Origin: Pseudorhodobacter aquimaris
Lineage (GTDB): Bacteria > Pseudomonadota > Alphaproteobacteria > Rhodobacterales > Rhodobacteraceae
Direction of reading: 5' to 3'
Assembly: GCF_001202025.1 (NCBI RefSeq)
Contig: NZ_LGHS01000014.1
Coordinates: 1 to 64,000 of the forward strand
DNA: 64,000 nucleotides
Under the pieces are notes generated by a model. That model did no database searches. It was not told where the DNA came from and worked only from the letters and a program-made list of their open reading frames with translations. Shown here piece by piece: positions 33,292-53,630 of this stretch. Both the position numbers and the translations under genes were made by a program. The stretch's first letter is position 1. Every line of letters begins with the position of its first letter.

Positions 33292-33328
33292 CTTTCAGAT
33301 TTACCAGCTTCTCTGCGCAAGTCAACAA

Positions 33329-33394: not shown

Positions 33395-33417
33395 ACATCA
33401 GGTTGTCGTGAAAAAAC

Positions 33418-34473: not shown

Positions 34474-34477
34474 ATGG

Positions 34478-34495
34478 TATTGTCCGCGGACAATA
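34478..34495. repeat. Candidate parS palindrome, copy 2 (just after repC)
   Basis: TATTGTCCGCGGACAATA is an 18-bp perfect palindrome beginning 5 bp after the repC stop. It shares 16 bp with copy 1. I found no further copies in the window. Confidence 0.7.
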
Positions 34496-34627
34496 TCGGT
34501 AACAAACCGGCAGGGCAGGGGGTTATGCTTATATTATCTTTTGTTTACAATGAATTAGCGGAATTTATGGCAACAAGGACCGCTAAACGACCGTGCACAG
34601 CCTGGATTTCACACAACCGCTATAAAT

Positions 34628-34645
34628 CTGTCGTCTAACTGTAAT
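34628..34645 (+). promoter_or_regulatory. Pho-box-like site upstream of phnC
   Basis: CTGTCGT-CTAA-CTGTAAT: two 7-bp direct repeats with an 11-bp period, each 6/7 matches to the PhoB half-site CTGTCAT. The box ends 35 bp before the phnC ATG. A GTCTA-N2-TGTA element inside it resembles the putative PhnF site before phnG, so activation by PhoB and repression by PhnF could overlap here. Confidence 0.6.
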
Positions 34646-34680
34646 ACGACCCCTTTAGCACAGGCTCCAAATTGGGGGCC

Positions 34681-35511
34681 ATGATGCTGACACTACAAAA
34701 TCTGACCAAGACCTTTGGCGACAAAACCGCCGTTCATAAGGTAAGCTTTAGCGTTGATCGTCCGATGATGATCGGGATTATCGGGCGCTCTGGCGCGGGG
34801 AAATCCACGGTTCTGCGGATGTTGAACCGGCTCAGCGATGCCTCCTCCGGCGCGATCCGGTTTGAGGGCAAGGACATCACACGCCTCAAGGGCGCCGAGC
34901 GTCGTAACTGGCAGTCGCGCTGTGCGATGATCTTTCAACAGTTCAATCTGGTGCCGCGGATGGATGTTGTTTCCAACGTATTGCACGGCACGTTGAACCG
35001 CCGCTCTACCTTGGCGACGATGTTCAACCTTTATCCTGACGGCGATATCCATAAGGCGATTGAGATCCTCGACCGTCTGGGCATTGCCGAACAGGCCCCG
35101 AAACGCGCGGAGGCCCTTTCGGGTGGTCAGCAACAACGTGTCGCCATCGCCCGCGCCCTGATGCAGGACCCGGCAATCATTCTGGCGGATGAACCCATCG
35201 CCTCATTGGACCCGATGAACGCACAGATCGTGATGCAGGCCCTGCGCCGCATCCATGAGGAAGACGGCCGCATGGTCATCGCCAACCTGCACACGCTGGA
35301 CACGGCGCGGCGCTATTGTGACCGGGTGATCGGGATGCGGGACGGGCGCGTGGTCTTTGACGGCGCACCAGAGGCGCTGACCACAGATGCGGCACGCGAG
35401 ATTTACGGCGCAGGCACGGATTTTTCCGAGGCCGCCACCTCTACCGAAATCGAAACGCTGGACAGGCCCGAGGCTCGTCCCCCCGAAGTCTTTGCCGAAG
35501 CCTTTGCCTGA
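34681..35511 (+). CDS. phnC: Phosphonate ABC transporter ATPase
   Basis: 276 residues with Walker [18 protein letters not shown] near residue 34, Q-loop [17 protein letters not shown] near residue 85, signature [16 protein letters not shown] near residue 144 and Walker [15 protein letters not shown] near residue 165. The insert [14 protein letters not shown] is typical of PhnC. It powers phosphonate import with PhnD and two PhnE subunits encoded next. I use the ATG at 34681; the ATG at 34684 is equally possible. The preceding Pho-box-like site predicts induction by phosphate starvation. Confidence 0.92.
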
Positions 35512-35563
35512 GCCAGCACAAAATCCCGCACCTCTGCGGGCCAATCCCATAACGGAGACTACA

Positions 35564-36469
35564 ATGAAAACCACTCTTGCTTTTGTACTGGCGACGACCG
35601 CGCTTGCCGGTGCTGTTCAGGCCCAGGATATCACCGAATTCCGCATCGGCATCCTTGGCGGTGAAAACGCTCAGGACCGCATGAATTCCAACGAATGTGT
35701 CCGCGCCTATGTCGAGGACCTGCTGGGGGTTGAAACCAAGATATTCACGCCTGCCGATTATGACGGGGTGATCCAGGGGCTGCTGGGTGGCTCGATTGAT
35801 ATGGCGTGGCTTGGGGCCTCTGCCTATGCGAAAACCTATATGACCGACCCCGAGGCGGTTGATGTGGTGATGGTGAAAACCAATCTGGACGGCTCTTACG
35901 GCTATCACTCGGTCGGTTTTGCCCGCGCCGACAGCGGCATCACCTCGTTGGAGGACATGAAGGGCAAGGTTTTTGCCTTTGGTGATCCGAACTCCACCTC
36001 CGGCTTTTTGATCCCTTCGGTTGAGATCCCCAAGGCCATCGGCGCGACCATGGAGTCGGGCGATTATTTCGGCGAGGTCCGCTTTGTCGGCGGGCATGAG
36101 CAGACCATCGTGGCGGTTGCCAATGGTGATGTGGATGCGGGCGTGACATGGGCCGACGGGCAGGGCGAGTGGCTGGACGGCTATAACTCCGGCGCGCTGC
36201 GCAAGGCGTCCGACTCGGGGTTGGTCGATATGAATGATCTGGTCGAGATCTGGAAATCCGACATCATCCCCGAAGGGCCGATCGTTCTGCGCCGCGCCCT
36301 GCCGGAAAAGGTCAAAGCCGATGTGACGGCCTTCCTTGGCGAATTGCACGGCAAAGACCCCGAGTGCGCCTATAACATGGCTGCGGGCGATACCGCCGGT
36401 TTCTTTCCGATCACCCATGACGCCTATAAAAACATCATCGCCGTGCGCGAAGCTGTTCAGGGCAACTGA
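35564..36469 (+). CDS. phnD: Phosphonate-binding periplasmic protein
   Basis: 301 residues. A signal peptide MKTTLAFVLATTALAGAVQA ends at residue 20. The mature protein shows the PhnD blocks FRIGILGGENAQDRMNSNEC, LLGGSIDMAWLGASAYAKTY near residue 70, VFAFGDPNSTSGFLIPSVEI near residue 140 (ligand-binding Ser/Thr cluster) and GDVDAGVTWADGQGEW near residue 190. It delivers phosphonates to the PhnC/PhnE transporter. RBS AACGGAGAC precedes the ATG. A strong hairpin after the stop may raise its mRNA level relative to the permeases. Confidence 0.93.
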   Translation: MKTTLAFVLATTALAGAVQAQDITEFRIGILGGENAQDRMNSNECVRAYVEDLLGVETKIFTPADYDGVIQGLLGGSIDMAWLGASAYAKTYMTDPEAVDVVMVKTNLDGSYGYHSVGFARADSGITSLEDMKGKVFAFGDPNSTSGFLIPSVEIPKAIGATMESGDYFGEVRFVGGHEQTIVAVANGDVDAGVTWADGQGEWLDGYNSGALRKASDSGLVDMNDLVEIWKSDIIPEGPIVLRRALPEKVKADVTAFLGELHGKDPECAYNMAAGDTAGFFPITHDAYKNIIAVREAVQGN

Positions 36470-36489
36470 GCCTTTGAAATCCGGGGGAG

Positions 36490-36511
36490 GGGCAGCGTTC
36501 CGGCGCTGCCC
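36490..36511 (+). other. Intercistronic stem-loop after phnD
   Basis: GGGCAGCG (36490-36497), loop TTCCGG, CGCTGCCC (36504-36511): an 8-bp perfect stem without a T-run. Hairpins after binding-protein genes in ABC operons commonly protect the 3' end of that message, so this likely favours PhnD over PhnE. Confidence 0.5.
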
Positions 36512-36538
36512 TTGCCACTATTTGCACTGGAGTATTCG

Positions 36539-37411
36539 ATGACAGGTTCCGCGCTGACTGGATCAAACCCGACCCGGTCCGACCATATTTCCGCAACCTA
36601 TGTGGTGCAGGTCCGCCGCCGCCGGATGTATGGCGGGCTGACCTTGGCCCTTTTTACCTTGCTGATGGTGTCGGGCTTTGTCGTGGCCGACGGGCGCAAT
36701 GCGGGCGGGTTCTGGGCCGGTTGGCATCAGATGTTGGACTTTCCCGCCGATGTCCTGTCAGAGGCCTGGGAAAAGCGCGCCAATCTGCCCGCGCTCTTGG
36801 TGAAATTCTTTCCCGCCCTGGTCGAGACGATCAATATCGCGGCGGCCTCTACCCTGATCGGGGCGATGGCGGGGCTGGTTCTGGCGCTGCTCTCGACGCG
36901 CGGGCTGGCGAAATGGCCCGCGCTTATTCCTGTGTTCCGCCGGATCATGGATGTGATGCGCGCGGTGCCTGAAATTGTGATCGCCCTTGTGCTGATCTTT
37001 ATCCTCGGCGGCGGGCCGGTGCCTGCGATGATCGCGATTGCCTTTCACACCGCGGGCGCCTTGGGCAAGCTTTATTCCGAGGTGGCCGAAAACGCCGACC
37101 TAAAACCTGTTGAAGGTCTGGGGTCGACAGGGGCCAGATGGATACAGCGGATGTGGCTGGGGGTTTTGCCCCAAGTAGCGCCGAATTTCCTGAGCTATAG
37201 CCTGCTGCGGTTCGAGATCAACATCCGCGCCTCGGCCATTCTGGGCTTTGTCGGGGCAGGGGGGATCGGGTCGGAATTGCGCCATGCGATGTCATGGGGG
37301 CCGGGCCGCTTTGATGAGGCGGCCGCGATCTTTGTCCTGCTCTTTGGGGCAATTGTTTTCTTTGACCAGCTTTCCAGCCGCTACCGCAACAAAATGATCG
37401 AGGGGCAATAA
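36539..37411 (+). CDS. phnE: Phosphonate ABC transporter permease 1
   Basis: 290 residues with about six hydrophobic helices (one at residues 25-42, then from about residue 95) and the binding-protein-dependent permease EAA-like loop ENADLKPVEGLGSTGARWIQ near residue 180. The C-terminal block is ASAILGFVGAGGIGSELRHA. RBS GGAG precedes the ATG at 36539. It pairs with the second permease, which starts 1 bp after this stop. Confidence 0.9.
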   Translation: MTGSALTGSNPTRSDHISATYVVQVRRRRMYGGLTLALFTLLMVSGFVVADGRNAGGFWAGWHQMLDFPADVLSEAWEKRANLPALLVKFFPALVETINIAAASTLIGAMAGLVLALLSTRGLAKWPALIPVFRRIMDVMRAVPEIVIALVLIFILGGGPVPAMIAIAFHTAGALGKLYSEVAENADLKPVEGLGSTGARWIQRMWLGVLPQVAPNFLSYSLLRFEINIRASAILGFVGAGGIGSELRHAMSWGPGRFDEAAAIFVLLFGAIVFFDQLSSRYRNKMIEGQ

Positions 37412-37412
37412 G

Positions 37413-38753
37413 ATGAGTGACGCGACAGTAACCCTTGCGCCTGCCAAACGTTCTGTCTCGGCGCTGTTCCGACGCAAACGGCAGATGGCCTTTGCCGTGC
37501 CTGCGATTGTGCTGGCCTATCTGCTCTATATCGCGGTCACCTTTGATTTCGCGGGGATTGCCAAACGTGCGAGCCTTGAGAATGCGGGGATTCTGGCCTC
37601 GGACAGCTGGTCCTATAAGGTGCATGTCACCCGCGACAACCGGCGGGGCGGGACCTCTTATGCGATTGAGGGTGAACGCAAGGGCACCTATGCCGATGGC
37701 ACGCATCCGGCCTGGGTCGATCCGCGCGGTGCCGAGGATGTGGTGATTGATCTGGAGGATGGCTATATCGTCCATTTCCTGCCCGATAATGCCGCCCTCT
37801 TCTATATTCCCGACTATGGCCGGATCGAGGCGCAGCTGGTCGACGGCAGCATCAAGACCAACCTGCAAGCGCCATTGCCCGACTGGATCAACCTGTCCGA
37901 TCAGCGCATGACGGTCACAACCGAGGCGGGCCGCATGACGATGACCCGTTCGCGCACCGAGGTGTACCGCTATTTCGCGGGGTGGGAGCTGTTCTGGTTC
38001 ACCCTCGACAGCCCCTATCACGGGCACAGCTTTGCGCAGATCCTCTTTGGCGACCGGATCGACCCGGATCGCGGCAATATCTCTGGTGCGCTGTCGGATT
38101 TCTGGAACAACGGCATGTGGCGTCACAAGGATGTGGCCTGGGCGATTGGTGAGACCATCCTGATGGCCTTCCTTGGCACCTTTGGCGCCGCAATCATCGC
38201 GCTGCCGCTGGCCTTTATGGCGGCGCGGAATTTCTCGCCGGTCTGGCTGGTACGCGGTGCGGCGCGGCGGCTGTTCGACTTTGTGCGCGGGGTCGATGCG
38301 CTGATCTGGACGGTGGTGCTGGCACGGGCCTTTGGTCCCGGTCCGTTGACGGGGGCGCTGGCGATCCTGATCACCGACACCGGCACCTTCGGCAAGATTT
38401 TCTCCGAAGCTTTGGAAAACGTCGATGAGAAACAGATCGAGGGTGTCAGCTCTACGGGCGCCAAGCCGATGCAGCGGTACCGTTTCGGGGTGATCCCGCA
38501 GGTGGTGCCGGTCTTGCTGGCGCAGGTCTTGTATTTTCTGGAATCCAACACCCGCTCGGCCACAGTTATCGGCGCGATTACGGGCGGCGGGATCGGCTTG
38601 ATGTTGACCCAGGCGATCCAGACCCAAAAGGACTGGGAAGAGGTCGCCTATTACATCGTGCTGATCGTTGGCGTGGTGATGCTGATGGATTGGTTCTCGG
38701 GCTGGTTGCGCGCGCGGTTGATCGGGGGCAAAGACCCCCGTGCGGGGGCCTAA
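37413..38753 (+). CDS. phnE: Phosphonate ABC transporter permease 2, with large periplasmic insert
   Basis: 446 residues, well above the roughly 270 of a plain PhnE. After the first helix (MAFAVPAIVLAYLLYIAVTF, residues 25-44) a hydrophilic segment of about 170 residues (for example VHVTRDNRRGGTSYAIEGER, VVIDLEDGYIVHFLPDNAAL) precedes the permease core from about residue 215. The core has the cytosolic loop EALENVDEKQIEGVSSTGAK and the block TRSATVIGAITGGGIGLMLT. The insert should lie in the periplasm and may contact PhnD. The stop overlaps the convergent phnF stop by 4 bp. Confidence 0.88.
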   Translation: MSDATVTLAPAKRSVSALFRRKRQMAFAVPAIVLAYLLYIAVTFDFAGIAKRASLENAGILASDSWSYKVHVTRDNRRGGTSYAIEGERKGTYADGTHPAWVDPRGAEDVVIDLEDGYIVHFLPDNAALFYIPDYGRIEAQLVDGSIKTNLQAPLPDWINLSDQRMTVTTEAGRMTMTRSRTEVYRYFAGWELFWFTLDSPYHGHSFAQILFGDRIDPDRGNISGALSDFWNNGMWRHKDVAWAIGETILMAFLGTFGAAIIALPLAFMAARNFSPVWLVRGAARRLFDFVRGVDALIWTVVLARAFGPGPLTGALAILITDTGTFGKIFSEALENVDEKQIEGVSSTGAKPMQRYRFGVIPQVVPVLLAQVLYFLESNTRSATVIGAITGGGIGLMLTQAIQTQKDWEEVAYYIVLIVGVVMLMDWFSGWLRARLIGGKDPRAGA

Positions 38754-39481
38754 TCCTCTATTGTCAGGGTCACTCGGTCGCCGGCAAACCATGTGCGGCC
38801 ATATTCAACCGGCACCCCTGCCGGGTCTACATTCAGGGCGGTAGAGCGCAGCAAGGGATCGCCCTCGCGGATCTGGAGGTGCAGCGCCTGCGTCGCATCG
38901 GCCAGAACTGCCGTCAGTCTGGTTGAGGCGCGGGTGTAATCCTCGACGCCGACACGGCGCAAGGCCTCGGTGATGCCGTCACATTCGGCAAGCGCGGCCT
39001 CTATCCTCGCAAGTCGGGTCAGCGGGAACAGGGTTTCAAACAGGGCAACGGGCTGCCCATCAGCATAGGACAGGCCGGAATAGTAACACAGCATCTCACC
39101 CGTCTGGATATTAAGGGCTGCGGCCTCTCCCTTTGACGCGGCGTGCTGTTCGATCAGCAAGACCTTGCGATCAGGGCGGCGACCGGCGGCCCGCAAGTTC
39201 TGATGAAAGCGCACCCTTTTGCCGATCGGGTAATCGGTCGGCGTCGCGGCGACAAAGCTGCCCGCCCCGCGCCGTGAGCGTACCAACCCTTCCTCGGTCA
39301 GATGTGACAGCGCTTGGCGCACTGTATGACGGTTTACCCCGAAACGGTCCGACAGGCGCGATTCCGTGGGCAGCTTGTCACCGGGGGCATAGCGCCCTTC
39401 GGAAATATCATTGCGCAGGGCATTGGCGATGGCCAGCCAGATCGGGGTCCGCCGCCGGTTGGATGATGGGTTGTCACTCAA
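38750..39481 (-). CDS. phnF: Phosphonate metabolism regulator PhnF (GntR/HutC family)
   Basis: 243 residues. The N-terminal winged helix is IWLAIANALRNDISEGRYAP with the recognition part RLSDRFGVNRHTVRQALSHL near residue 47 and wing EGLVRSRRGAGSFVA. A UTRA ligand-binding domain follows (from about residue 85), with LCYYSGLSYADGQPVALFET and the C-terminal PVEYGRTWFAGDRVTLTIE. It probably represses phn genes until a phosphonate or C-P lyase intermediate binds. It is divergent from phnG with an 81-bp spacer that contains a repeated element. Confidence 0.88.
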   Translation of the reverse strand: MSDNPSSNRRRTPIWLAIANALRNDISEGRYAPGDKLPTESRLSDRFGVNRHTVRQALSHLTEEGLVRSRRGAGSFVAATPTDYPIGKRVRFHQNLRAAGRRPDRKVLLIEQHAASKGEAAALNIQTGEMLCYYSGLSYADGQPVALFETLFPLTRLARIEAALAECDGITEALRRVGVEDYTRASTRLTAVLADATQALHLQIREGDPLLRSTALNVDPAGVPVEYGRTWFAGDRVTLTIED

Positions 39482-39528
39482 ATTTCACAAATCTCCTCTG
39501 TCGTCATGCGGCGAATCTGATAAGATAT

Positions 39529-39542
39529 GTCTAGTTGTATAG
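39529..39542. promoter_or_regulatory. Candidate PhnF operator between phnF and phnG
   Basis: GTCTAGTTGTATAG lies in the phnF-phnG spacer, and its flanks form the direct repeat ATGTCTAG / TTGTATAG. The core GTCTA-N2-TGTA recurs at 34633-34643 before phnC. HutC-subfamily GntR proteins bind TA-rich sites of this kind, which supports, without proving, PhnF binding. Confidence 0.4.
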
Positions 39543-39562
39543 GAAAACACAGAGTTGTCGAG

Positions 39563-40018
39563 ATGAATGAAACCACCGCCGACATATCCGCCCGCAAGGC
39601 GTGGATGGGCCTGATGGCCAAAGCCCCCGCCGCGCGTGTGGGTGCGCTCTTGGATGGCGCCTGTGCGCGCCCCGATTTCAAATGGCTGCGCCCCCCCGAG
39701 GTGGGCAGCGTCATGGTGCGCGGCAGGGCAGGGGGCACCGGCGCGCCGTTCAATCTGGGAGAGATGACGGTGACCCGTTGCGCACTGCGTCTTGCCAGCG
39801 GCGAGGTGGGCCACGCCTATATCCAAGGCCGCAGCAAGGCGGATGCCGAGGCCGCCGCCCTGATCGATGCGCTGATGCAAACCGGTCAGGCCGCGACATT
39901 GCAAACCGCGGTGCTGGATGTGCTGGCCGCGGATCGCGCCGCCTTGACCAAGGTCCGTGCCGAAAAGGCCGCCGCAACCAAGGTCGATTTCTTTACCATG
40001 GTCAGAGGGGAAGACTGA
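39563..40018 (+). CDS. phnG: C-P lyase core subunit PhnG
   Basis: 151 residues: RKAWMGLMAKAPAARVGALL near residue 10, FKWLRPPEVGSVMVRGRAGG near residue 40, FNLGEMTVTRCALRLASGEV near residue 63 and GHAYIQGRSKADAEAAALID near residue 82, the PhnG pattern. PhnG with PhnH, PhnI and PhnJ forms the C-P lyase core complex; with PhnI and PhnL it transfers phosphonate to ribose of ATP. Start ATG 39563 is used. It overlaps phnH by 1 bp (TGATG). Confidence 0.92.
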   Translation: MNETTADISARKAWMGLMAKAPAARVGALLDGACARPDFKWLRPPEVGSVMVRGRAGGTGAPFNLGEMTVTRCALRLASGEVGHAYIQGRSKADAEAAALIDALMQTGQAATLQTAVLDVLAADRAALTKVRAEKAAATKVDFFTMVRGED

Positions 40019-40581
40019 TGAATACCCAGGTTCTCGACGGCGGGTTTGCCGATCCCGCACCCCAAGCCGCCCGCGCCTTTCGCGCCGTGATGGAGGCGAT
40101 GGCCCGCCCCGGCACGATCCATTGCCTGAGCGGCGCCACACCACCCGCACCGCTGTCGGTTGCGGCGGCTGTGGCCATCCTGACGCTTTGTGACACGGAT
40201 ACGCCGGTCTATCTGGCGGGCGATATGGACACGCCTGACGTTCGCGCATGGATCGCATTCCATACCGGCGCGCCGTTCTCAGGGCCTGCGACCTGCGCCT
40301 TTGCGCTGGGGCGCTGGGATGATCTTGCGCCGCTGTCCGCCTATCCGATCGGGAGCGCGGATTACCCCGACCGTTCGGCCACGCTGATCGTTGCCGTGGA
40401 TGCGCTGGAAAACAGCAGCCAGAACCTGCAAGGGCCGGGCATCCAAAACACCGCCCGGCTTTCCCTGCCTGAAATACCGGCCTTTCAGGCCAATCACGCG
40501 CATTTCCCCTGCGGGCTGGATTTCCTGTTCACCTGTGATGATCGCATCGCGGGCCTGCCCCGCTCAACCGAGGTATCTTAA
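40018..40581 (+). CDS. phnH: C-P lyase core subunit PhnH
   Basis: 187 residues: GFADPAPQAARAFRAVMEAM at residues 9-28, ARPGTIHCLSGATPP, AAVAILTLCDTDTPVYLAGD and, near the end, LPEIPAFQANHAHFPCGLDF, all family blocks. It has a PLP-transferase-like fold without the cofactor site and is a structural part of the C-P lyase core. Start overlaps the phnG stop by 1 bp; phnI starts 1 bp after its stop. Confidence 0.92.
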   Translation: MNTQVLDGGFADPAPQAARAFRAVMEAMARPGTIHCLSGATPPAPLSVAAAVAILTLCDTDTPVYLAGDMDTPDVRAWIAFHTGAPFSGPATCAFALGRWDDLAPLSAYPIGSADYPDRSATLIVAVDALENSSQNLQGPGIQNTARLSLPEIPAFQANHAHFPCGLDFLFTCDDRIAGLPRSTEVS

Positions 40582-40582
40582 C

Positions 40583-41671
40583 ATGTATGTTGCCGTCAAA
40601 GGCGGAGAGCGCGCCATTGAAAACGCCCATGCCTGGCTGGCCGAGGAACGCCGTGGCGACCCTTCGGTGCCCGAACTGACCATCGCCCAGATCCGCGAAC
40701 AGCTTAGCCTGTCGGTCAACCGTGTTATGGCCGAAGGCTCTCTCTATGACCCTGACCTTGCCGCTTTGGCGATCAAACAGGCGCGGGGCGACCTGATTGA
40801 GGCGGTGTTCCTGATCCGCGCTTATCGCACCACCTTGCCCCGTTTCGGGGCCAGCGCGCCGGTGGCCACGGCCGATATGGCCTGTGACCGCCGCGTCAGT
40901 GCCACCTTCAAGGATGTGCCGGGCGGGCAGGTCTTGGGGCCGACCTTTGACTACACCCACCGTTTGCTGGATTTCAAACTGGCGGCTGAAGGCGAAACAC
41001 CCCCCGCGCCTCAACGCGAGGCCGACCCCGCGCCCGTGCCCCATGTCACCGGCTTCCTCAACCAAGAGGGGCTGATCGAGGAAGCCCCCCATGACGACAC
41101 CCCCCCGCCGGACCTGACCCGAGAGCCGCTGAAAATGCCCGCCGACCGCAGCCTGCGCCTGCAGGCGCTTAGCCGTGCGGATGAGGGGTTTACGCTGGGG
41201 CTGGCCTATTCCACGCAGCGCGGCTACGGGCGCAACCACGCCTTTGTCGGCGAGTTGCGGATCGGCACAGTGCCGGTAGAGATGGAAATCCCCGAGCTGG
41301 GCTTTGCCATCGAGATCGGTGAGGTCACCCTGACCGAATGCGAAACCGTCAACCAGTTTACCGGATCGAAAACCGAACCGCCGCAATTCACCCGCGGCTA
41401 TGGCCTCGTCTTTGGTCAGACCGAACGCAAGGCGATTTCCATGGCCTTGGTCGACCGCGCCCTACGCTGGGAGGAGCTGGGCGAGGATGACACCGGCGCG
41501 CCTGCGCAGGATGCGGAATTTGTGCTTTATCATGCCGATAACATTCAGGCGACGGGGTTTTTGGAACATATCAAGCTGCCCCATTACGTCGATTTCCAAT
41601 CGGAACTGGAACTGGTGCGTAAATTGCGCCGCGATGTGCAATCAACCCAAACCAAGGAGGCGGCGGAGTGA
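40583..41671 (+). CDS. phnI: C-P lyase core subunit PhnI (nucleosidase component)
   Basis: 362 residues from MYVAVKGGERAIENAHAWLA. Further blocks are LTIAQIREQLSLSVNRVMAE near residue 34, QARGDLIEAVFLIRAYRTTL near residue 69, QALSRADEGFTLGLAYSTQR near residue 192 and HAFVGELRIGTVPVEMEIPE near residue 220. PhnI has nucleosidase activity that exchanges adenine of MgATP for methylphosphonate together with PhnG, PhnH and PhnL. The start at 40583 is fixed by homology to the family N-terminus; the longer frame overlaps phnH. Stop overlaps phnJ by 4 bp. Confidence 0.93.
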   Translation: MYVAVKGGERAIENAHAWLAEERRGDPSVPELTIAQIREQLSLSVNRVMAEGSLYDPDLAALAIKQARGDLIEAVFLIRAYRTTLPRFGASAPVATADMACDRRVSATFKDVPGGQVLGPTFDYTHRLLDFKLAAEGETPPAPQREADPAPVPHVTGFLNQEGLIEEAPHDDTPPPDLTREPLKMPADRSLRLQALSRADEGFTLGLAYSTQRGYGRNHAFVGELRIGTVPVEMEIPELGFAIEIGEVTLTECETVNQFTGSKTEPPQFTRGYGLVFGQTERKAISMALVDRALRWEELGEDDTGAPAQDAEFVLYHADNIQATGFLEHIKLPHYVDFQSELELVRKLRRDVQSTQTKEAAE

Positions 41672-42525
41672 CCGAGCAAGCCTATAACTTCGCCTATCTG
41701 GATGAGCAAACCAAGCGGATGATCCGCCGCGCGATCCTCAAAGGCTTGGCGATCCCCGGCTATCAGGTGCCCTTTGCCAGCCGTGAGATGCCGATGCCTT
41801 ATGGCTGGGGCACGGGCGGGGTGCAGGTCTCGGCGGCGGTGCTTTGCCCCGAGGACCGGATGAAGGTGATTGACCAAGGTGCCGATGACACCACCAATGC
41901 CGTGTCCATTCGCAGCTTTTTCGAGCGTACGGCGGGGGTAGAAACCACCACCAGCACGGCCGAGGCCAGCGTGATCCAGACCCGCCACCGCGTGCCGGAA
42001 ATGGCGCTGAGCGAGGGGCAGATCCTGGTCTATCAGGTGCCGATCCCCGAACCCCTGCGGTTTCTGGAACCCCGCGAAAGCGAGACCCGCAAGATGCACA
42101 GCCTAGAGGAATACGGGCTGATGCACGTCAAGCTTTATGAGGATATCGCGCGCCACGGCCATATCGCCACGGCCTATGCCTATCCGGTCAAGGTCGAGGG
42201 GCGCTATGTGATGGACCCCTCCCCGATCCCGAAGTTCGACAACCCGAAGCTGTCGGATTGCGCGGCGATCCAATTGTTCGGGGCAGGGCGCGAACAACGC
42301 ATCTATGCGCTGCCGCCCTATACCAGCGTGGTCAGCCTCGATTTTGAGGATCACCCCTTTGAGGCCTCGAAACCCGATCACCCCTGCGGGCTGTGCGGTG
42401 CCGAGGACAGCTATCTGGACGAGGTGATTATGGATGATGCGGGCGGGCGGATGTTCGTCTGTTCGGATACCGATTTTTGCGAGGCCCGCCGCCTTGCAGG
42501 GCATAAGGGAAAGGACGCAGCATGA
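41668..42525 (+). CDS. phnJ: C-P lyase radical-SAM enzyme PhnJ
   Basis: 285 residues. The C-terminal cysteine cluster HPCGLCGAEDSYLDEV ... RMFVCSDTDFCEARR (about residues 238-272) matches the PhnJ [4Fe-4S] motif and the catalytic Cys. The N-terminal block YAYLDEQ-like NFAYLDEQTKRMIRRAILKG and GYQVPFASREMPMPYGWGTG are conserved. PhnJ cleaves the C-P bond of 5-phosphoribosyl-1-phosphonate to give the hydrocarbon and the 1,2-cyclic phosphate. It overlaps phnI and phnK by 4 bp each. Confidence 0.95.
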   Translation: MTEQAYNFAYLDEQTKRMIRRAILKGLAIPGYQVPFASREMPMPYGWGTGGVQVSAAVLCPEDRMKVIDQGADDTTNAVSIRSFFERTAGVETTTSTAEASVIQTRHRVPEMALSEGQILVYQVPIPEPLRFLEPRESETRKMHSLEEYGLMHVKLYEDIARHGHIATAYAYPVKVEGRYVMDPSPIPKFDNPKLSDCAAIQLFGAGREQRIYALPPYTSVVSLDFEDHPFEASKPDHPCGLCGAEDSYLDEVIMDDAGGRMFVCSDTDFCEARRLAGHKGKDAA

Positions 42526-43298: not shown

Positions 43299-43302
43299 GG
43301 GT

Positions 43303-43992
43303 ATGACAATGATCGAATTGCAAGATGTCTCCAAGGTTTTCACGCTGCACAATCAAGGGTCCGCCGTGATCGAGGTTCTGTCGGGTGTCAGCCTGTCGGT
43401 CAAGCCGGGCGAATGTGTGGCGCTGACCGGATCATCGGGGTCGGGGAAATCCACGCTGATGCGGATGATCTATGGCAACTACATGGCGCAATCGGGGGAA
43501 ATCCGCATCGGCGGCACCGATCTGGTCAAGGCCGAACCGCGTGAGGTTATCCGCATCCGCCGTGAAACCTTGGGCTATGTCAGCCAGTTCTTGCGGGTGG
43601 TGCCACGGGTGGCAACGCTGGATGTGGTGGCCGAACCCTTGCGCGCCGTCGGGGTGGATGCCGAGACCGCACAGGCCCGCGCGCGGGCGTTGTTGACGCA
43701 GCTGAACATCCCGCAAACGCTTTGGTCGCTCTCGCCCACGACATTTTCGGGCGGCGAGCAACAGCGCGTCAATATCGCGCGCGGCTTTGCCCACCCTTAC
43801 CCTGCGATGCTGCTGGATGAGCCGACCGCAAGCCTTGATGCCCAAAACCGTCAGGTGGTCTTGACCCTGATCGAAGAAGCCAAGGCACGCGGGGCCGCCA
43901 TCATCGGGATTTTCCATGATGAGGCCGCGCGCGATCGGGTCTGTGACCGCGAGATTGACGTAACCGGCTATGCGCCCCGGCGTGCGGCATGA
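43303..43992 (+). CDS. phnL: C-P lyase associated ABC-type ATPase PhnL
   Basis: 229 residues: MIELQDVSKVFTLHNQGSAV, Walker A ALTGSSGSGKSTLMRMIYGN near residue 42, TLGYVSQFLRVVPRVATLDV near residue 90, signature TTFSGGEQQRVNIARGFA near residue 150 and Walker B AMLLDEPTASLDAQNRQVV near residue 170. PhnL takes part with PhnG, PhnH and PhnI in forming the ribosylated phosphonate. The ATG at 43303 is used; ATG 43309 is possible. The stop overlaps phnN by 4 bp. Confidence 0.92.
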   Translation: MTMIELQDVSKVFTLHNQGSAVIEVLSGVSLSVKPGECVALTGSSGSGKSTLMRMIYGNYMAQSGEIRIGGTDLVKAEPREVIRIRRETLGYVSQFLRVVPRVATLDVVAEPLRAVGVDAETAQARARALLTQLNIPQTLWSLSPTTFSGGEQQRVNIARGFAHPYPAMLLDEPTASLDAQNRQVVLTLIEEAKARGAAIIGIFHDEAARDRVCDREIDVTGYAPRRAA

Positions 43993-44539
43993 CCGGTGGC
44001 ATGACGGGGGGGCGCTTCATCGCGGTTGTCGGCCCCTCGGGCGTGGGCAAGGACAGCATCATGACTGCCCTTGCCAACCCGCAAATGCGGCTGGTGCGCC
44101 GTGCCATCACCCGCGCCCCCGGTCTGGGCGGTGAGGATTACGACGCCATAACCCCCGCCGATTTTGACAAGGCCACCGAGGCAGGCGCCTTTTGCCTGCA
44201 TTGGTCGGCGCATGGGCTGCATACGGTATCCCCGCGCAGGTGCGCAGGGATATTGAGGCGGGGGCGGACCGTATCGTGAACCTTTCGCGCGGTGCCCTTG
44301 AGGAGGCAGCAAAGATCTTTGCGCGTCTGGTGGTGCTGCATATCACCGCCAGCCCAGAGACCTTGGCGCAGCGTCTGAAACACCGCGGGCGTGAGGATAC
44401 GGGCGATATCGCCAAACGGCTGGCCTCGGCGCAAAAGCCCCTGCCAGCGGGGCTGAGTGTCATCGAGATCGTAAATGACGGCCCGCTAGAGGCGGCGGTG
44501 GCCAAGGCCCGCGCCGCCCTTCAACCCGATAGGGTGTAA
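43989..44539 (+). pseudogene. phnN: phnN, ribose 1,5-bisphosphokinase, split by a 1-bp frameshift
   Basis: The first frame gives FIAVVGPSGVGKDSIMTALA (P-loop), VRRAITRAPGLGGEDYDAIT and AFCLHWSAHGLH, then runs into a stop at 44279. The next frame resumes exactly with YGIPAQVRRDIEAGADRIVN, LVVLHITASPETLAQRLKHR and ends at 44539. The break is at 44218-44222 (CTGCATACGG): one missing base separates AHGLH from YGIPA. With it restored the protein would be 183 residues, the normal PhnN length. The site is not a homopolymer, so a real mutation is plausible, but an assembly error is not excluded. Confidence 0.88.
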
Positions 44540-45192
44540 CGTTGGATCACCTCAAACCGCCCATCGACACGTTCCCCCACCAAGGCGATCCGGTCCAACC
44601 GGAACGGCGCGGGCAGGGGGGGCAGATGGGCCTCGGCCATGGCCTGCCAATGGGTGCGGGCGTCATCGGTCAACCGACCCGTCAGCGTCAGGTGGAACCC
44701 GAATTCCTCCATCACATAGGGATAGCCCCAGCGGGTCAACAAGGCCTCTTGGCGCGGGGAAAGACCGGCGGCGCGCCTGCGGGCAAGCTCTGCCTCGGGG
44801 GCGGGGGCGCGGAAGGGGTCCAGATCGGCCACGCATTGCGCCGCCACACGGGCGATTTCCGCCGTCCCGCCCACGGGCCGCAAGGCCAGAAACCCGCCCA
44901 GATTACCCAGTGCCAAACCGTCACAAACCGCAGGCGCACAGCCCGCCGCCATCAGGGCCACGGCCCGTTCCAGATCGGTGGCACTGTGCGGCGCATGCAG
45001 CCGGAAGGGCGGCTTCAACGTGGCATGGAACCCGTATTTGCGCGGTGTCATCGTTACGTCATCAAGCTGCGCTATGTCGAACTGATCCGCCGTCTGGCCC
45101 GTCGCCACATCCCAGCCCAGCCACGCCGCCCCGAAATCTGCCAGATCGCCCTCGGGCGGCACATAATAAATCGCAAAACGAGTGTATGACAT
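44521..45192 (-). CDS. DUF1045 phosphonate-locus 2H phosphoesterase
   Basis: 223 residues of DUF1045 (PF06299). Two H-x-T-x motifs, YGFHATLKPPF near residue 50 and FGFHLTLTGRL near residue 174, define the 2H phosphoesterase superfamily active site, which acts on cyclic or 2',5'-linked phosphates. It is encoded on the opposite strand between phnN and phnM, overlapping the end of phnN by 19 bp. No phnP is visible in this window, so it could open the ribosyl 1,2-cyclic phosphate made by PhnJ (inference). Start MSYTRFAIYYVPP fits the family N-terminus. Confidence 0.85.
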   Translation of the reverse strand: MSYTRFAIYYVPPEGDLADFGAAWLGWDVATGQTADQFDIAQLDDVTMTPRKYGFHATLKPPFRLHAPHSATDLERAVALMAAGCAPAVCDGLALGNLGGFLALRPVGGTAEIARVAAQCVADLDPFRAPAPEAELARRRAAGLSPRQEALLTRWGYPYVMEEFGFHLTLTGRLTDDARTHWQAMAEAHLPPLPAPFRLDRIALVGERVDGRFEVIQRYTLSG

Positions 45193-45241
45193 GAATTCTC
45201 CTTCTCTTCCGATCACCATAGCGCAGGAACATGACCGTTCC

Positions 45242-46384
45242 ATGTCAGATAGCATCTGCCTTGCCAACGCCCGCCTTGTTCTGGCGGACCGCATTGTCAC
45301 CGGCAGCGTGACGATCGAGGACGGTATCATCACCGAGATCACCGAGGGCGATCACATCCCCATAGGGGCAACCGATTGCAAGGGCGACTACTTGATGCCC
45401 GGTCTGGTAGAACTGCACACCGACAATCTGGAACGGCATATCGAGCCGCGCCCCTCGGTCGACTGGCCGCACCGTCCCGCTATTCTGGCGCATGACGCAG
45501 AGCTTGCCTCAACCGGGATCACCACGGTGTTCGATGCGCTGCGGGTGGGGTCGATCCATGATGGCAAGGCGCGCTATAATGCCTATGCGCGCGGCCTTGC
45601 CAATGAGTTGCTGGAGGTGCGCGCGGCAGGCCATCTGCGCATCAGCCATTTCCTGCACCTGCGCGCCGAGATTTGTTCCGAAACCCTATTGGAGGAGATG
45701 GCCGCCTTTGGTCCCGATGACCGTGTCGGTATCGTCAGCTTGATGGATCACACCCCCGGTCAGCGCCAGTTCCGCGATGTCTCTGCACTCAAGACCTATG
45801 TGGCCAAGAAACGCGGGATGAATGATGCCGATTTTGAGGTCCATGTCGAAAACCTCAAGGCGTTGCAGCGCAAATACGGCGTGCAGCATGAGGTGGGCGC
45901 CGTGGCCGAGGCGAACCGCTATGGCGCGACCCTGTGCAGCCATGATGACACCACCGCCGAACAGGTCGCCCAGTCACGCGAAAACGGGGTGCGCTTTGCC
46001 GAATTTCCCACCACGCTGGAGGCGGCAGAGGCCTGTCACGCAAACGGCATCGCGGTAATGATGGGCGCGCCCAATATCATTCGCGGGGGGTCACATTCGG
46101 GCAATGTCTCGGCGCTGGAGCTGGCGCGGGCGGGGGTGCTGGATATTGTGTCTTCCGACTATGTGCCCTCGGCGCTGTTGTTGTCGGTGTTCCGGCTGGA
46201 TGAGGTCTGGGACGACCTGCCGCGCGCGGTGGCCTGTGTGACGCGTAACCCCGCATCGGCGGCGGGGCTGGTGGATCGCGGGGTGGTCGCAACCGGCCTG
46301 CGCGGCGATGTGATCCGCGTCGGGCTGGCCCAAGGCGCGCCGCTATTGCGCGGCGTCTGGAGCAGGGGCGCGCGCGTCGGCTGA
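45242..46384 (+). CDS. phnM: RPnTP hydrolase PhnM
   Basis: 380 residues of the amidohydrolase superfamily. It shows the metal-binding [20 protein letters not shown] near residue 50, [15 protein letters not shown] near residue 168, [16 protein letters not shown] near residue 233 and the late aspartate region [20 protein letters not shown] near residue 302. PhnM removes pyrophosphate from alpha-D-ribose-1-phosphonate-5-triphosphate. Start [14 protein letters not shown] at 45242 follows the family. It is divergent from DUF1045 with a 49-bp spacer and overlaps the end of ureG by 42 bp convergently. Confidence 0.92.
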
Positions 46385-46999
46385 GAGGGTCAGCCCGCCT
46401 TCGCGTTGCAAAAACGCCACCACCTCGGCCACGCCTGCACCATCGCGCAGGTTCGCCATGACATAGGGGCGGGTCGCGCGGGCGGTTCTGGTATCGGCCT
46501 CTAGCAGCATGATATCGACACCAACATGGGGGGCGAGGTCGGTTTTATTGACCACCAGAAAATCGGATTTCGCCACCCCCGGCCCCTTTTTGCGCGGAAT
46601 ATCCTGACCGGCGGCGGTATCAATCACATAGATCGACAGATCGACAAGTTCAGGGCTGAAGGTCGCGGCAAGGTTATCCCCGCCCGATTCAATCAAGACC
46701 AGATCGAGGTCGGGGAATTTGCCGCGCAGATTGGCCACGGCGGCAAGGTTGATGCTCGCATCCTCGCGGATGGCGGTATGGGGGCAGCCGCCGGTTTCGA
46801 CGCCGCGAATACGATCTTGGGGCAAGACCTGTGCGCGGACCAGAAAATCGGCATCCTCGCGGGTATAGATATCATTGGTGATCACCGCCATCGAACAGCG
46901 CCCTGCCAATGCGCGGCAAAGCTGTTCGGTCAGCGTGGTTTTCCCCGCGCCCACCGGGCCACCAATTCCCACCCGAAGCGGGCCGTTTGCATGGGTCAT
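46343..46999 (-). CDS. ureG: Urease accessory GTPase UreG
   Basis: 218 residues. P-loop [20 protein letters not shown] near residue 8, [20 protein letters not shown] near residue 46, the nickel-binding CPH motif in [17 protein letters not shown] near residue 66, [20 protein letters not shown] near residue 100 and [18 protein letters not shown] near residue 145. UreG delivers nickel to urease with UreF, UreD(H) and UreE using GTP. Its start overlaps the ureF stop by 4 bp. It is the last gene of the urease operon, and its 3' end overlaps phnM convergently. Confidence 0.95.
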
Positions 47000-47640
47000 G
47001 AGCGAAATATCCTTACCTCAAGTGTTTCGTGGCGCATGGCGGCCATATCGGCGCCGATGCTGCTGGAGAAAAGATCATCCAATGTGGCCTCTGCGGCACG
47101 GCTGGCGGTTTGCAAAATCACCGGCGAAAGGGACAAAAGCACGGCTTGCCCCTCGGCCCCGCCAAGCGGGATAAAGCGCACGGCGGCAGAGACCAGCTGG
47201 GCGGCAAAGGCCTGAAGCCAAAGCGCAAGCACTTCTTGGCTGTCCAGGGCCATGGTTTGTGTGGCATGACCCACGGCCAGCGCATAGGGCAATTCCGGCG
47301 GTGTGACCCCTGTCAGCCGCGCGACCAACTGGCCAAAGGTGGCGCCTTGGTCGCGCATCTCGGCGCTGCGCTCGGCACTGGGGGCATAGGCATAGGCCAG
47401 ATCGGCGAGGGCGCCCACATCCCCCGTGCGCGCCTGTGCCAGCAACACCGCATCCATCCAGCCGCTGCCATGGGTGATCAGCGCCGTGATCCAATCCGTC
47501 AGGCTGGCGGCATCCTGCACCGTGCCGTCGACCATCGCCTGCTCCAGCCCTTGGCTATAGGCATATCCCCCCACCGGAAAGGCGGGAGAGAGCATTTGGA
47601 CCAAGGCCAGCCGGTCCGCCGCAAGCGTGCTAATGTGCAT
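46996..47640 (-). CDS. ureF: Urease accessory protein UreF
   Basis: 214 residues from [20 protein letters not shown]: all-helical UreF with [20 protein letters not shown] near residue 22 (the conserved SPAFPVGG-x-x-YS-x-GLE motif) and QETALxx-like helices to the end. UreF is a GTPase-activating partner of UreG in urease maturation. The ATG at 47640 overlaps the ureE stop by 11 bp; an ATG at 47664 is possible but would overlap more. Confidence 0.9.
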
Positions 47641-48082
47641 GGCCCATTGTGCGGCCATGGCCATAAGCCCCGCCCTCCGGGTGAAAGGGCAGCATTTTCG
47701 GCGTAAGGCTGGCCCCCAGTTGCGTCAGCATCGCCTCCAGCACCGGATCGCGGCGGACGACCAGATGATCGCCCGCCACCTGACATGGCGTGTGCCGGTT
47801 GCCGATATGCCACGCCAGCCGCAAGAGGTTATCACCGCGGATCACGACCACGGGTTCCTCGGCGGCGGCAATGGCAATCACGCGGCCATCATCCAGTTGC
47901 AAGGCCTGACCGGGCAAAAGATTGGTCACCTCGGCCAGATCGAGCATAAAGGCGGTGCCGCCGTCGGCCTCGATCCGTTTGCGGCGCATCAGGCGGCTTT
48001 CATAATCCAGCGTCACCGTGTCGGAGGGGGTCTGCCCATGCCCCAAGGGCAGGACGGTTTGGCAAAGGGCAAGCAGGGTCAT
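47630..48082 (-). CDS. ureE: Urease nickel metallochaperone UreE
   Basis: 150 residues: VTLDYESRLMRRKRIEADGG near residue 22, FMLDLAEVTNLLPGQALQLD near residue 45 and the metal-binding domain LLRLAWHIGNRHTPCQVAGD near residue 86 with the nickel His in WHIGNRH. The C-terminus is His-containing ([11 protein letters not shown]) but short. UreE donates nickel to UreG. Located between ureC and ureF, 6 bp after ureC. Confidence 0.93.
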   Translation of the reverse strand: MTLLALCQTVLPLGHGQTPSDTVTLDYESRLMRRKRIEADGGTAFMLDLAEVTNLLPGQALQLDDGRVIAIAAAEEPVVVIRGDNLLRLAWHIGNRHTPCQVAGDHLVVRRDPVLEAMLTQLGASLTPKMLPFHPEGGAYGHGRTMGHAH

Positions 48083-48088
48083 AGGGCC

Positions 48089-49798
<1,710 letters not shown>

Positions 49799-49799
49799 G

Positions 49800-50105
49800 T
49801 TAAAGATCCCCCATGATCTTGCTGTTGAAACCAAAGACCCGCCGCGCACCGCCATAAGGGACAAGCTGCACCTCGCGCTGCTGGCCCGGCTCAAAGCGCA
49901 CAGCGGTGCCTGCGGCGATATCCAGCCGCATCCCGCGCGCAATGCTCCGGTCGAAATCCAGCCCCGCGTTGGCCTCGGCAAAATGGAAATGAGAGCCGAC
50001 CTGAATCGGCCTGTCGCCGGTATTGGCAACCATCATCGTGATCGCGGGCTGCCCTTCATTCAGGGTAATCTCACCCGCTGCAGGGAAAACCTCACCCGGT
50101 ATCAT
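49800..50105 (-). CDS. ureB: Urease beta subunit
   Basis: 101 residues: [40 protein letters not shown] near residue 30, [20 protein letters not shown] near residue 52 and [20 protein letters not shown] at the C-terminus. A separate beta subunit is the usual bacterial form. Its start overlaps the upstream ureJ stop by 4 bp, and ureC follows after 1 bp. Confidence 0.95.
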
Positions 50106-50662
50106 AGCGCCCCCCCGGCAAGGCCAAGCCCCGCAACCGCAGTGGCCGCCCCCATCATGCGTGGCATCCAGCCCGCGCCCATCCGGCCCAAGGCGATGCC
50201 CAGTGCATGCAATGCGGCCGTCATTCCGGCAAAGCCCGCGCCATAAGCGATAAGCCCCGTGCTTGGCCCCTCAACCCCGTGGGCAAAGCCGTGCGCCGCG
50301 CCAAAGACGGCCAAAGCCACCAAGACCGTGGCCAGTGCAGGCCGCAGGGTAAGCGCCGCCGCCGCGCCGATCAGCACGACCGAGGCGGTGATCATCGGCT
50401 CTACGCCTGAAACCATCATTCCCAAGGCCCCCGCCATGCCGCCCGCCAGCATCGCCAGCACAAAGGCCAAGGGCATCGCCCAAAGCGCGCGCCCGCCGAT
50501 CATCGCGGCCCAGACCCCGACGCCGACCATCGCCAGAATATGATCGGCCCCCGTAATCGGGTGAACCATCCCCGAAACAAAGGCACCCCCACTATGGGCG
50601 CCGCTATGGGCCAAGGCGGCACCGGGCAGGCAGATCAGGGCAAGAAGGGTAAGACGCAACAT
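50102..50662 (-). CDS. ureJ: HupE/UreJ membrane protein of the urease operon
   Basis: 186 residues. A signal-like N-terminus ([18 protein letters not shown]) is followed by [20 protein letters not shown] and the family motif [20 protein letters not shown] (His and Asp conserved), then about five further hydrophobic helices with [13 protein letters not shown] near residue 118. HupE/UreJ proteins are secondary permeases thought to import nickel, here for urease. The gene lies between ureA and ureB, as usual in alphaproteobacteria. Start 50662 is chosen over 50677. Confidence 0.85.
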
Positions 50663-50683
50663 CGGGTATCCTTTCAAACGGGG

Positions 50684-50986
50684 TCAGCGGATCGGCTGAT
50701 GAACAGTGACAAGTTTGGTGCCATCGGGAAAAGTCGCCTCGACCTGAACGGAGTGGAGCATCTCGGGGATGCCCTCCATGCAATCCTCGGCGCGCAGCAC
50801 CCCGGCACCGGCCTGCATCAAGTCGGCAACACTGCGGCCATCGCGGGCGCCCTCGACGACAAAATCGGTGATCAGGGCCACGGCCTCGGGGTGGTTCAGC
50901 TTTACACCGCGTTCCAGCCGGTTTCGGGCCACCATCGCGGCCAAAGACACCAGCAGTTTTTCGCGTTCGCGTGGGGTCAGGTTCAT
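50684..50986 (-). CDS. ureA: Urease gamma subunit
   Basis: 100 residues: [40 protein letters not shown] near residue 27, [20 protein letters not shown] and [20 protein letters not shown] near residue 73. It matches the canonical 100-residue gamma subunit and overlaps ureD by 4 bp. Confidence 0.96.
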
Positions 50987-51807
50987 ATCAATCCTCCGCT
51001 CTGCCAGACGCGGGGCAAGGCCCGTCCGGTCAGGATTTTCAAAACTCGGGCAAGCTGTTGACGCATGGGCCAGCCGTCCGCCGCACTAATGCGCAGCACA
51101 CAGCGACCATCCCAGCCGGACACGGCCGCGCCTTCGCCCAAGGCCGCACGGATCGGCCCGACGGCATCCTCGGCCCCTTGGGCGATCAGGCAGACCACGG
51201 CAAAGGCACGGTCCCCGCGCAAAAGGGCGGCCGAACGATCGGCCAGAACATCCGCGCTTAGCCGGAAGTTTTCGGCCCAAAGGGGGCGGCCTTCGCGCCG
51301 GATGATGCGGCGGTCGTGCAAATCGGCCTGGTGCAGGGTTTCGCCCATCGCGGCCCGTCCCAGAACAAGGCTTTCGGTCAAAAGACATTCGGCCCCTTTG
51401 GCCAGATCGATCTCTGTTGTGCGGTGTAGATTTGCGTTCTGAAACAGGATGGTTTCTTGGGGCATCCAGTCGAGCCGCGCGCCCGCGCCGAGGGTTGCGC
51501 GCACCCCGATGCGGGCCGCCCCCCCTGAGGAGGCATAGCCGCGCTCGGCGGTCTGGGTTGTCGCCAGAACACGGCACCCCGCGCCCACATCCATCGACAG
51601 CCGCAAGTGGTCGCCGCCGGTCAACCCGCCGGAGGTGTTCAGAAACACCGCCTCGGGCACATCCCCCGCAACCCGTGGCAGCATGAGTTTGGCCGCGCCT
51701 TCCTGACGCAGCCCGTCCAATGCGATGCGCCCCCTGCGCTTGGAAAACCCCACAGCCGCCACGCCATAGCTGCGCTGCATCTGGGATTGATCGATCTCGT
51801 CCAGCAT
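50983..51807 (-). CDS. ureD: Urease accessory protein UreD
   Basis: 274 residues from [40 protein letters not shown] near residue 45, [20 protein letters not shown] (conserved [10 protein letters not shown]), [20 protein letters not shown] near residue 110 and a C-terminal AAxxGGxxVR-like segment. UreD is the scaffold on which UreF and UreG load nickel into apo-urease. It is the promoter-proximal gene of the eight-gene operon. RBS AAAGGCGGG precedes the ATG at 51807. Confidence 0.9.
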
Positions 51808-51998
51808 CGGCCCGCCTTTCCATGCTTTTCTATGGCACGGCTGTTTGGCATCGCACATATGCGCGCCGCCCAAGACGGTGGGCTTGGCGATCAGACGGTC
51901 GAATTTGCCCCATATTTAGGCAAATTGCGCAATATTATGGCTGAACAGGGATGGAACTTGTGTGTAAACGTCTTTGCGCGCCTTTAATTTGGGCAGGG

Positions 51999-52052: not shown

Positions 52053-52085
52053 TATATCTGACGGCATTGCGCTACAGGATTCGTT

Positions 52086-53620: not shown

Positions 53621-53630
53621 GGGGCCACAG

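What the first reader, a model, noticed from the sequence alone, without database searches (positions are those of the whole stretch)
34628..51807. Phosphonate and urea scavenging modules placed side by side behind the replication origin
About 17 kb directly after repC encodes complete phosphonate uptake and cleavage and a complete urease with its nickel permease. Neither pathway has its regulator outside (phnF is inside; none for urease). This suggests a transferable N/P-limitation module typical of plasmid-borne adaptation in oligotrophic seawater.
Basis: inference. Interest (0 to 1): 0.3.

Follow-up and report, generated by a model that had tools for sequence, protein, structure and literature searches.

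The report
Phosphonate and urease operons beside repABC
A Pseudorhodobacter contig carries ordinary gene sets for using phosphonates and urea end to end, next to a plasmid replication cassette; a sister species has the same pair without that cassette, so this does not look like a self-contained travelling nutrient module.

Summary
The observation largely holds. phnCDE1E2F-GHIJKLN-DUF1045-phnM (34.6-46.4 kb) and ureGFECBJAD (46.3-51.8 kb) lie directly after repABC (30.9-34.5 kb). Both operons are ordinary; 21 of 21 genes computed show dN/dS under 0.5 against P. turbinis. "Complete" is too strong: phnN is frameshifted in this assembly, no PhnP passes its cut-off (DUF1045 may replace it), and no urea transporter gene was seen in the stretch.

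Pseudorhodobacter turbinis carries the same block (91% DNA identity, continuing in pieces for about 63 kb) on a 1.58-Mb plasmid record, in a genome with no RepC match. Here repABC fills a 3.9-kb slot where the order relative to P. turbinis inverts, so closeness to the origin looks incidental. phn and ure converge with a 42-bp overlap. The pairing was seen only in these two species (0 of 64 other phnM loci as far as held; 0 of 2 other phn-bearing congeners). phn groups with Lentibacter, apart from congeners; urease groups with three congeners. A PhoB-box-like site before phnC weakly hints at outside regulation. Whether the 113-kb contig is its own plasmid is unresolved: both ends lie in a multicopy IS.

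The parts
30937..32220 (+). repA (partition ATPase; exact start uncertain)
   Evidence: TIGR03453 562 bits, over cut-off
32220..33185 (+). repB (partition protein)
   Evidence: TIGR03454 320 bits, over cut-off
33418..34473 (+). repC (replication initiator)
   Evidence: NF040974 204.7 bits, over cut-off 150
33469..33482 (.). parS-like palindrome TTGTCCGCGGACAA, copy 1 (base 52 of repC)
   Evidence: 2 in window, 0.03 expected; a like pair in 5 of 5 related repABC loci held, in none of the other 95 loci
34480..34493 (.). parS-like palindrome, copy 2, just after the repC stop
34605..34605 (.). breakpoint: from here rightwards collinear with P. turbinis plasmid 1265258 onward; left of it repABC here, a transposase-like gene there (read by eye)
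34628..34645 (+). PhoB-box-like site CTGTCGTctaaCTGTAAT, 35 bp before phnC
   Evidence: 2 mismatches to CTGTCATN4CTGTCAT; at most 2 mismatches in 0.2% of 6000 random 250-bp stretches
34681..35511 (+). phnC
   Evidence: TIGR02315
35564..36469 (+). phnD
   Evidence: TIGR03431
36539..37411 (+). phnE1
   Evidence: TIGR01097
37413..38753 (+). phnE2
   Evidence: TIGR01097
38750..39481 (-). phnF (GntR-family regulator)
   Evidence: TIGR02325
39563..40018 (+). phnG
   Evidence: TIGR03293
40018..40581 (+). phnH
   Evidence: TIGR03292
40583..41671 (+). phnI
   Evidence: PF05861 549 bits
41668..42525 (+). phnJ (C-P lyase)
   Evidence: PF06007 474 bits
42522..43298 (+). phnK
   Evidence: TIGR02323
43303..43992 (+). 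phnL
   Evidence: TIGR02324
43989..44542 (+). phnN, frameshifted near 44,221 in this assembly
   Evidence: two halves match TIGR02322 positions 1-93 and 76-171, each under cut-off; open in P. turbinis
44521..45192 (-). DUF1045 / TIGR03223 protein, putative cyclic phosphodiesterase
   Evidence: 243.9 bits, just under cut-off 248.95
45242..46384 (+). phnM
   Evidence: TIGR02318 over cut-off
46343..46384 (.). 42-bp convergent overlap of the 3' ends of phnM and ureG: the junction
   Evidence: the same tail-to-tail overlap in P. turbinis
46343..46999 (-). ureG
   Evidence: TIGR00101
46996..47640 (-). ureF
   Evidence: PF01730
47630..48082 (-). ureE
   Evidence: best UreE model NF009758, 193.8 bits, under its cut-off 237
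48089..49798 (-). ureC
   Evidence: TIGR01792 960 bits
49800..50105 (-). ureB
   Evidence: TIGR00192
50102..50662 (-). ureJ/hupE, candidate nickel permease
   Evidence: PF04955 147.6 bits
50684..50986 (-). ureA
   Evidence: TIGR00193
50983..51807 (-). ureD
   Evidence: PF01774

Best explanation
Two ordinary nutrient operons sit in a block shared, on an extrachromosomal replicon, by two species of one Pseudorhodobacter lineage. PhnCDE import phosphonates; PhnGHIJKLM with PhnN and probably DUF1045 cleave the C-P bond to release phosphate; PhnF and perhaps PhoB control them. UreABC, loaded with nickel by UreDEFG and perhaps UreJ, splits urea to ammonia. The phn set probably came in by horizontal transfer and was joined tail to tail with a urease of the genus's own lineage before the two species split. 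The repABC cassette with its two parS-like sites is a separate element that in this genome fills the slot just upstream of phnC, where gene order inverts relative to P. turbinis. Shown here: gene content and order, single copies, the shared block, no RepC match in P. turbinis, different trees. Inferred: enzyme functions (from families), PhoB control, the timing of the join, the direction of the repABC change.
For: C14 34605-65207 matches P. turbinis NZ_CP039965 1265258-1295861 in one piece at 91%, and on to 97468/1335540 in further pieces. Pieces of C14 between 1739 and 30725 match 1379197-1359256 inverted, and the repABC slot 30725-34605 has no match in the P. turbinis stretch compared, 1250258-1385000. 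No RepC in the P. turbinis genome by protein or by Pfam RP-C. A ParA-like gene on the large replicon (G007 C2:1112703) has a look-alike of equal frame length and similar score here on contig C69. Junction in 0 of 64 genome contigs phnM loci, 55 of which hold at least 3 kb past phnM; congeners G002 and G004 have phnM without a ureG match beside it. UreC tree: window + P. turbinis join G002, G003, G008 with 96/95 support (10 rows). PhnJKM tree: window + P. turbinis join Lentibacter with SH-aLRT 99, G004 joins a Ruegeria plasmid (99) and G002 a Paracoccus plasmid (99) (65 rows, quick method). dN/dS 0.018-0.46 in 21 genes, phnN left out.
Against: The direction of the repABC change is not fixed: P. 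turbinis could have lost repABC. The slot is not the only difference: about 8.3 kb at 21.0-29.3 kb also breaks the match, with only weak pieces inside. C14 is an unclosed 113,213-bp contig, so its replicon is unknown. PLSDB types the P. turbinis plasmid as mobilizable, so transfer of the whole replicon is possible. The UreC tree has 10 rows, and its G008 row was pieced from two matches. In the phn tree G004 lies in the same 21-row group as the window, so its separation rests on the inner forks (99 and 87). The PhoB-box-like site was not found at 2-3 mismatches before phnC in the four other loci examined, two more 2-mismatch sites lie inside or at the start of other genes, and the window has more weak matches (10) than its shuffles (mean 3.81).
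Confidence: 0.8

Rival explanations
1. One reading: repABC, phn and ure form one transferable N/P-limitation unit carried by a roseobacter-type plasmid.
For: All lie together on one contig; one PhnM and one UreC in the genome; repABC with its parS-like pair looks intact; phn looks horizontally acquired; PhnM matches in 237 plasmid records, 40 of them seen; the P. turbinis plasmid is typed mobilizable, MOBP.
Against: P. turbinis carries phn+ure without a RepC match; four opened repABC relatives have other neighbours; the junction was not seen elsewhere; urease follows the genus. No transfer gene was named among the 50 window ORFs scanned, but not all ORFs were scanned.
Confidence: 0.1
2. A refinement compatible with the best explanation: C14 is a separate repABC plasmid of about 113 kb, formed when part of the large replicon came off and gained a repABC cassette, with an inversion and without about 24 kb that P. 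turbinis has between the two matching blocks.
For: Contig ends overlap by 425 bp at 420/425 in the right orientation; Pt 1380584-1381574 maps at C14 104410-103423, as expected if the circle closes; repABC looks intact.
Against: The terminal overlap is an IS110-type element with other copies in the genome, also at other contig ends such as C20:1-440, and it is not exact.
Confidence: 0.4
3. The other refinement compatible with the best explanation: the block is still in a large replicon here, which now has repABC as an extra replication system.
For: A look-alike of the large replicon's ParA-like gene is on C69; C14's right end and C20's start hold overlapping parts of the same IS in the same orientation.
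Against: Only the 3.9-kb repABC slot, not a recognisable plasmid body, is extra at that point.
Confidence: 0.4

Closest known systems
C-P lyase operon of Rhodobacterales plasmids (Salipiger profundus pTPRO1, Ruegeria sp. SCSIO 43209 unnamed3, Paracoccus pantotrophus unnamed1, strain SC52 pSC52_1)
   Same: phnCDEE, phnF reversed, phnGHIJKLN, phnM, with a reversed DUF1045 gene annotated in three of the four, on plasmids
   Different: Those are followed by other genes, not urease. Three carry an extra acetyltransferase-like gene after phnE. phnN is frameshifted here.
ureDAJBCEFG urease operon, e.g. Paracoccus methylovorus plasmid p1
   Same: Same order with HupE/UreJ between ureA and ureB
   Different: phnM is about 36 kb away in that record. 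Three congeners' ureases (G002, G003, G008) show no UreJ match between ureA and ureB.
RepABC replicons of Rhodobacterales (Phaeobacter sp. G2, two Sulfitobacter, Parasedimentitalea plasmids)
   Same: repA-repB-repC order, same parS-like palindrome twice at like places; location agrees with passages of PMC9040568
   Different: Other genes follow repC in the four opened, of seven full repABC rows listed.
Pseudorhodobacter turbinis S12M18 plasmid unnamed1 (NZ_CP039965)
   Same: Whole phn-ure block and junction, 91% DNA
   Different: No RepC match in its genome; a transposase-like gene (by eye) precedes phnC; phnN open

Membership tests
C-P lyase (phn) operon | Core genes phnGHIJKLM present | tested here: met
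C-P lyase (phn) operon | ABC importer phnCDE | tested here: met
C-P lyase (phn) operon | PhnP or a substitute phosphodiesterase | tested here: inconclusive
   PhnP under cut-off in genome; DUF1045 present; its role is only proposed (PMC8235418, passages)
C-P lyase (phn) operon | Intact phnN | tested here: not met
   frameshift in assembly; that PhnN is accessory is recalled
Urease operon | Structural ureABC and accessory ureDEFG | tested here: met
   UreE recognised only below its best model's cut-off
Urease operon | Active urease | not testable with these tools
   needs an enzyme assay
RepABC replicon | repA, repB, repC in order on one strand | tested here: met
RepABC replicon | RepB-binding palindromes (parS) | tested here: met
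   by sequence and position only; an earlier recalled consensus gave one 1-mismatch site, 2.16 expected
[quoted passage not shown]
   no Rfam hit there at gathering threshold; not examined further
RepABC replicon | Contig is a closed replicon | tested here: inconclusive
Transferable repABC-phn-ure module | Parts found together in unrelated hosts | tested here: not met
   not seen in the loci and rows examined

The most novel reading that the evidence does not exclude
A repABC cassette filling a 3.9-kb slot, with its second parS-like site at the far end, was inserted where order inverts in a large repC-less replicon and split off a roughly 113-kb block, phn and urease included, as a new plasmid: the birth of a plasmid caught between two sister species.
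Probability: 0.3. Interest if true: 0.4.

Novelty: new member of a known kind. Interest (0 to 1): 0.2.

Why it matters
It shows that closeness to a plasmid origin does not make a gene block the cargo of that origin: a second species with the same block lacks the origin. It also gives a pair of genomes in which a replication cassette came or went at one point of a shared replicon. For nutrient physiology it is ordinary.

Tried and rejected
Rejected or undecided: (1) Shared control of phn and ure from one promoter: the operons converge. (2) A sigma-54 (NtrC-type) promoter for urease: 43 weak matches in the window against 43.8 expected, none listed within 51,780-52,100. (3) An antisense RNA in ureC: Rfam RF02514 (5' ureB sRNA) matches at 49357-49642, but it also matches antisense to ureC in 5 of 5 other urease loci given, so I read it as coding conservation. 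(4) Closing C14 by exact end overlap of 15-399 bases: none. A naive join of the ends without removing the 425-bp overlap gave no stop-free frame over the join; that test is uninformative. (5) An empty-site test on the large replicon: its left neighbour (Pt 1230-1249 kb) is on C20, the right one (Pt 1395 kb on) on C67, but the matches stop 4.7 kb from the end of C20 and 7.9 kb from the start of C67, so nothing was decided. Pt 1250-1265 kb gave only 7 short matches, the longest about 280 bp, in this genome. (6) Urea transporter: a tblastn with Limimaricola UrtA listed 40 of 1584 plasmid records, NZ_CP039965 not among them; the other rows were not seen, and this genome was not searched for it. 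(7) Literature: five searches; the one for C-P lyase + urease + plasmid + Rhodobacteraceae held no paper. Of the other lists only PMC8235418, PMC10132767, PMC9040568 and PMC5613091 were opened, by passages.

Slips of mine: the PhnI query was in a wrong frame; PhnI figures of that call are not used, and it was corrected. In one search the second half of phnN was left out because the chosen stretch held a stop.
Full report
What is there. The window is bases 1-64000 of contig C14 (113,213 bp) of a 3.8-Mb, 77-contig genome. The best relative in the plasmid collection is Pseudorhodobacter turbinis S12M18 plasmid unnamed1, NZ_CP039965, 1,584,601 bp. The genome held as G007 has the same coordinates for phnM and is of the same genus as the window's.

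What is not complete. phnN is interrupted by a one-base deletion near 44,221 relative to P. turbinis; the halves match the PhnN profile separately. No PhnP passes its curated cut-off in the genome. A DUF1045 gene is frequently found next to phnM and has been proposed to do that step (PMC8235418, passages seen); in a marine Phaeobacter the DUF1045 protein and PhnM stand in a table of the P-stress response (PMC10132767, one passage seen). The genes assigned in the stretch include no urea transporter, whereas the Limimaricola plasmid urease has urtABCDE beside it.

Copies. One UreC and one PhnM match in the whole genome, so no second copy at that sensitivity. Among 9 genomes of the genus searched, PhnM matches in 4 and a real UreC (at least 68% identity) in 6; a seventh genome has only a weak 40% match over about 100 residues.

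Where the block sits in the sister species. C14 compared with P. turbinis 1250258-1385000 shows two blocks. C14 34605-97468 runs with 1265258-1335540 (91% falling to 87%, with a broken stretch at about 71-76 kb). Pieces of C14 between 1739 and 30725 run with 1379197-1359256 in the opposite direction, interrupted at 21.0-29.3 kb by about 8.3 kb in which only weak pieces (69-76%) match, elsewhere in that region. The repABC slot, 30725-34605, has no match there. The P. turbinis genome has no RepC match by protein or by the Pfam RP-C profile. A ParA-like gene on its large replicon, C2:1112703, has a look-alike of equal frame length and similar score here on contig C69. In P. turbinis the sequence just before the shared block ends a gene that I read as an IS5-type transposase (by eye; not searched). 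The simplest reading is one inversion with an end at this point and a repABC gain here or loss there; about 15 kb before phnC in P. turbinis is largely absent from this genome. PLSDB types the P. turbinis plasmid as mobilizable with a MOBP relaxase, so the replicon as a whole may be transferable.

The repABC cassette. RepA, RepB and RepC pass their cut-offs. The palindrome TTGTCCGCGGACAA occurs twice in the window, once from base 52 of repC and once just after it, against 0.03 expected. A like pair stands in 5 of 5 related repABC loci held (Phaeobacter, two Sulfitobacter, Parasedimentitalea, congener G002) and in none of the other 95 loci; the second copy is 7-9 bp after repC in the window and the four plasmids, about 24 bp in the congener. 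[quoted passage not shown] passages of PMC5613091 describe group-specific 14-nt palindromes. In the four plasmids opened, of seven full repABC rows listed, other genes follow repC; the congener's stretch gave no match to the phn, ure or flank proteins tested.

The junction. phnM and ureG overlap by 42 bp tail to tail, and P. turbinis has the same tail-to-tail overlap. Of 64 genome-contig loci with phnM, none shows a urease or repABC match (E 1e-8) in the stretch held; 55 of the 64 hold at least 3 kb beyond phnM, the other 9 less (lengths, matches). In the genus, G002 has about 1.9 kb and G004 1.6 kb beyond phnM, with no ureG match. In the plasmid searches, rows seen were 40 of 237 for PhnM and 60 of 164 for UreC; three records are in both lists, and of these only P. 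turbinis has the two side by side (the others about 36 kb and 166 kb apart).

Histories. The concatenated PhnJ-PhnK-PhnM tree (64 of 71 loci had all three, plus the window; quick method, SH-aLRT only) puts window + P. turbinis with Lentibacter (99), G004 with a Ruegeria plasmid (99) and G002 with a Paracoccus plasmid (99): three placements in one genus, so transfer is likely, though G004 is in the same 21-row group as the window. The UreC tree (10 rows) joins window + P. turbinis with congeners G002, G003 and G008 (96/95), G004 elsewhere. Those three congeners' ureases show no match to UreJ between ureA and ureB. So the pair seems to be assembled from parts with different pasts, before the two species separated or passed between them.

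Function and control. Against P. turbinis, dN/dS is 0.018-0.46 for 21 genes, phnH being the highest; the first half of phnN, computed apart, gave 0.34. A site with two mismatches to CTGTCATN4CTGTCAT (consensus recalled) lies 35 bp before phnC in both species, which are not independent. 0.2% of 6000 random 250-bp stretches do as well, but four other phnC upstream regions do not (4, 4, 7 and 5 mismatches), and the window holds two further 2-mismatch sites and 10 sites at up to 3 mismatches against 3.81 expected. This weakly suggests control by PhoB, against the idea that regulation is wholly inside.

Plasmid or not. Both ends of C14 lie in an IS110-type element in the same orientation, overlapping 425 bp at 420/425 (the family name is my reading of the transposase). 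That element has other copies and lies at other contig ends, so a closed circle and a larger replicon both remain possible.

Verdict. The claim that they form a transferable unit with the origin is not supported: the sister species has the block without that origin, and the related origins opened come without the block.

Noticed in passing
43989-44542: phnN carries a one-base deletion relative to P. turbinis, splitting the frame; real or assembly error.
   Followed up: partly
49357-49642: Rfam RF02514 (5' ureB sRNA) scores antisense to ureC here and in 5 of 5 other urease loci given; probably reflects ureC coding conservation, so the family may over-call.
   Followed up: yes
1-590 and C14 112636-113213: Both contig ends lie in copies of an IS110-type transposase gene that also lies at other contig ends.
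   Followed up: yes
21011-29322: About 8.3 kb, with a PHB-depolymerase-type esterase, an acyltransferase-like and two oxidoreductase genes, interrupts the P. turbinis collinearity.
   Followed up: partly
G000 contig C8, 556-4060: A second RepA/RepC set (RepA 48%, RepC 42% and 31% identical in pieces) on a 19.7-kb contig.
   Followed up: no
L088 (congener G008), 9181-10877: ureC matches in two overlapping pieces in different frames, so it looks split in that assembly.
   Followed up: no
52086-56669: A MarR-like regulator, an RND adaptor and an AcrB-type efflux pump lie divergently next to ureD, also in P. turbinis.
   Followed up: no
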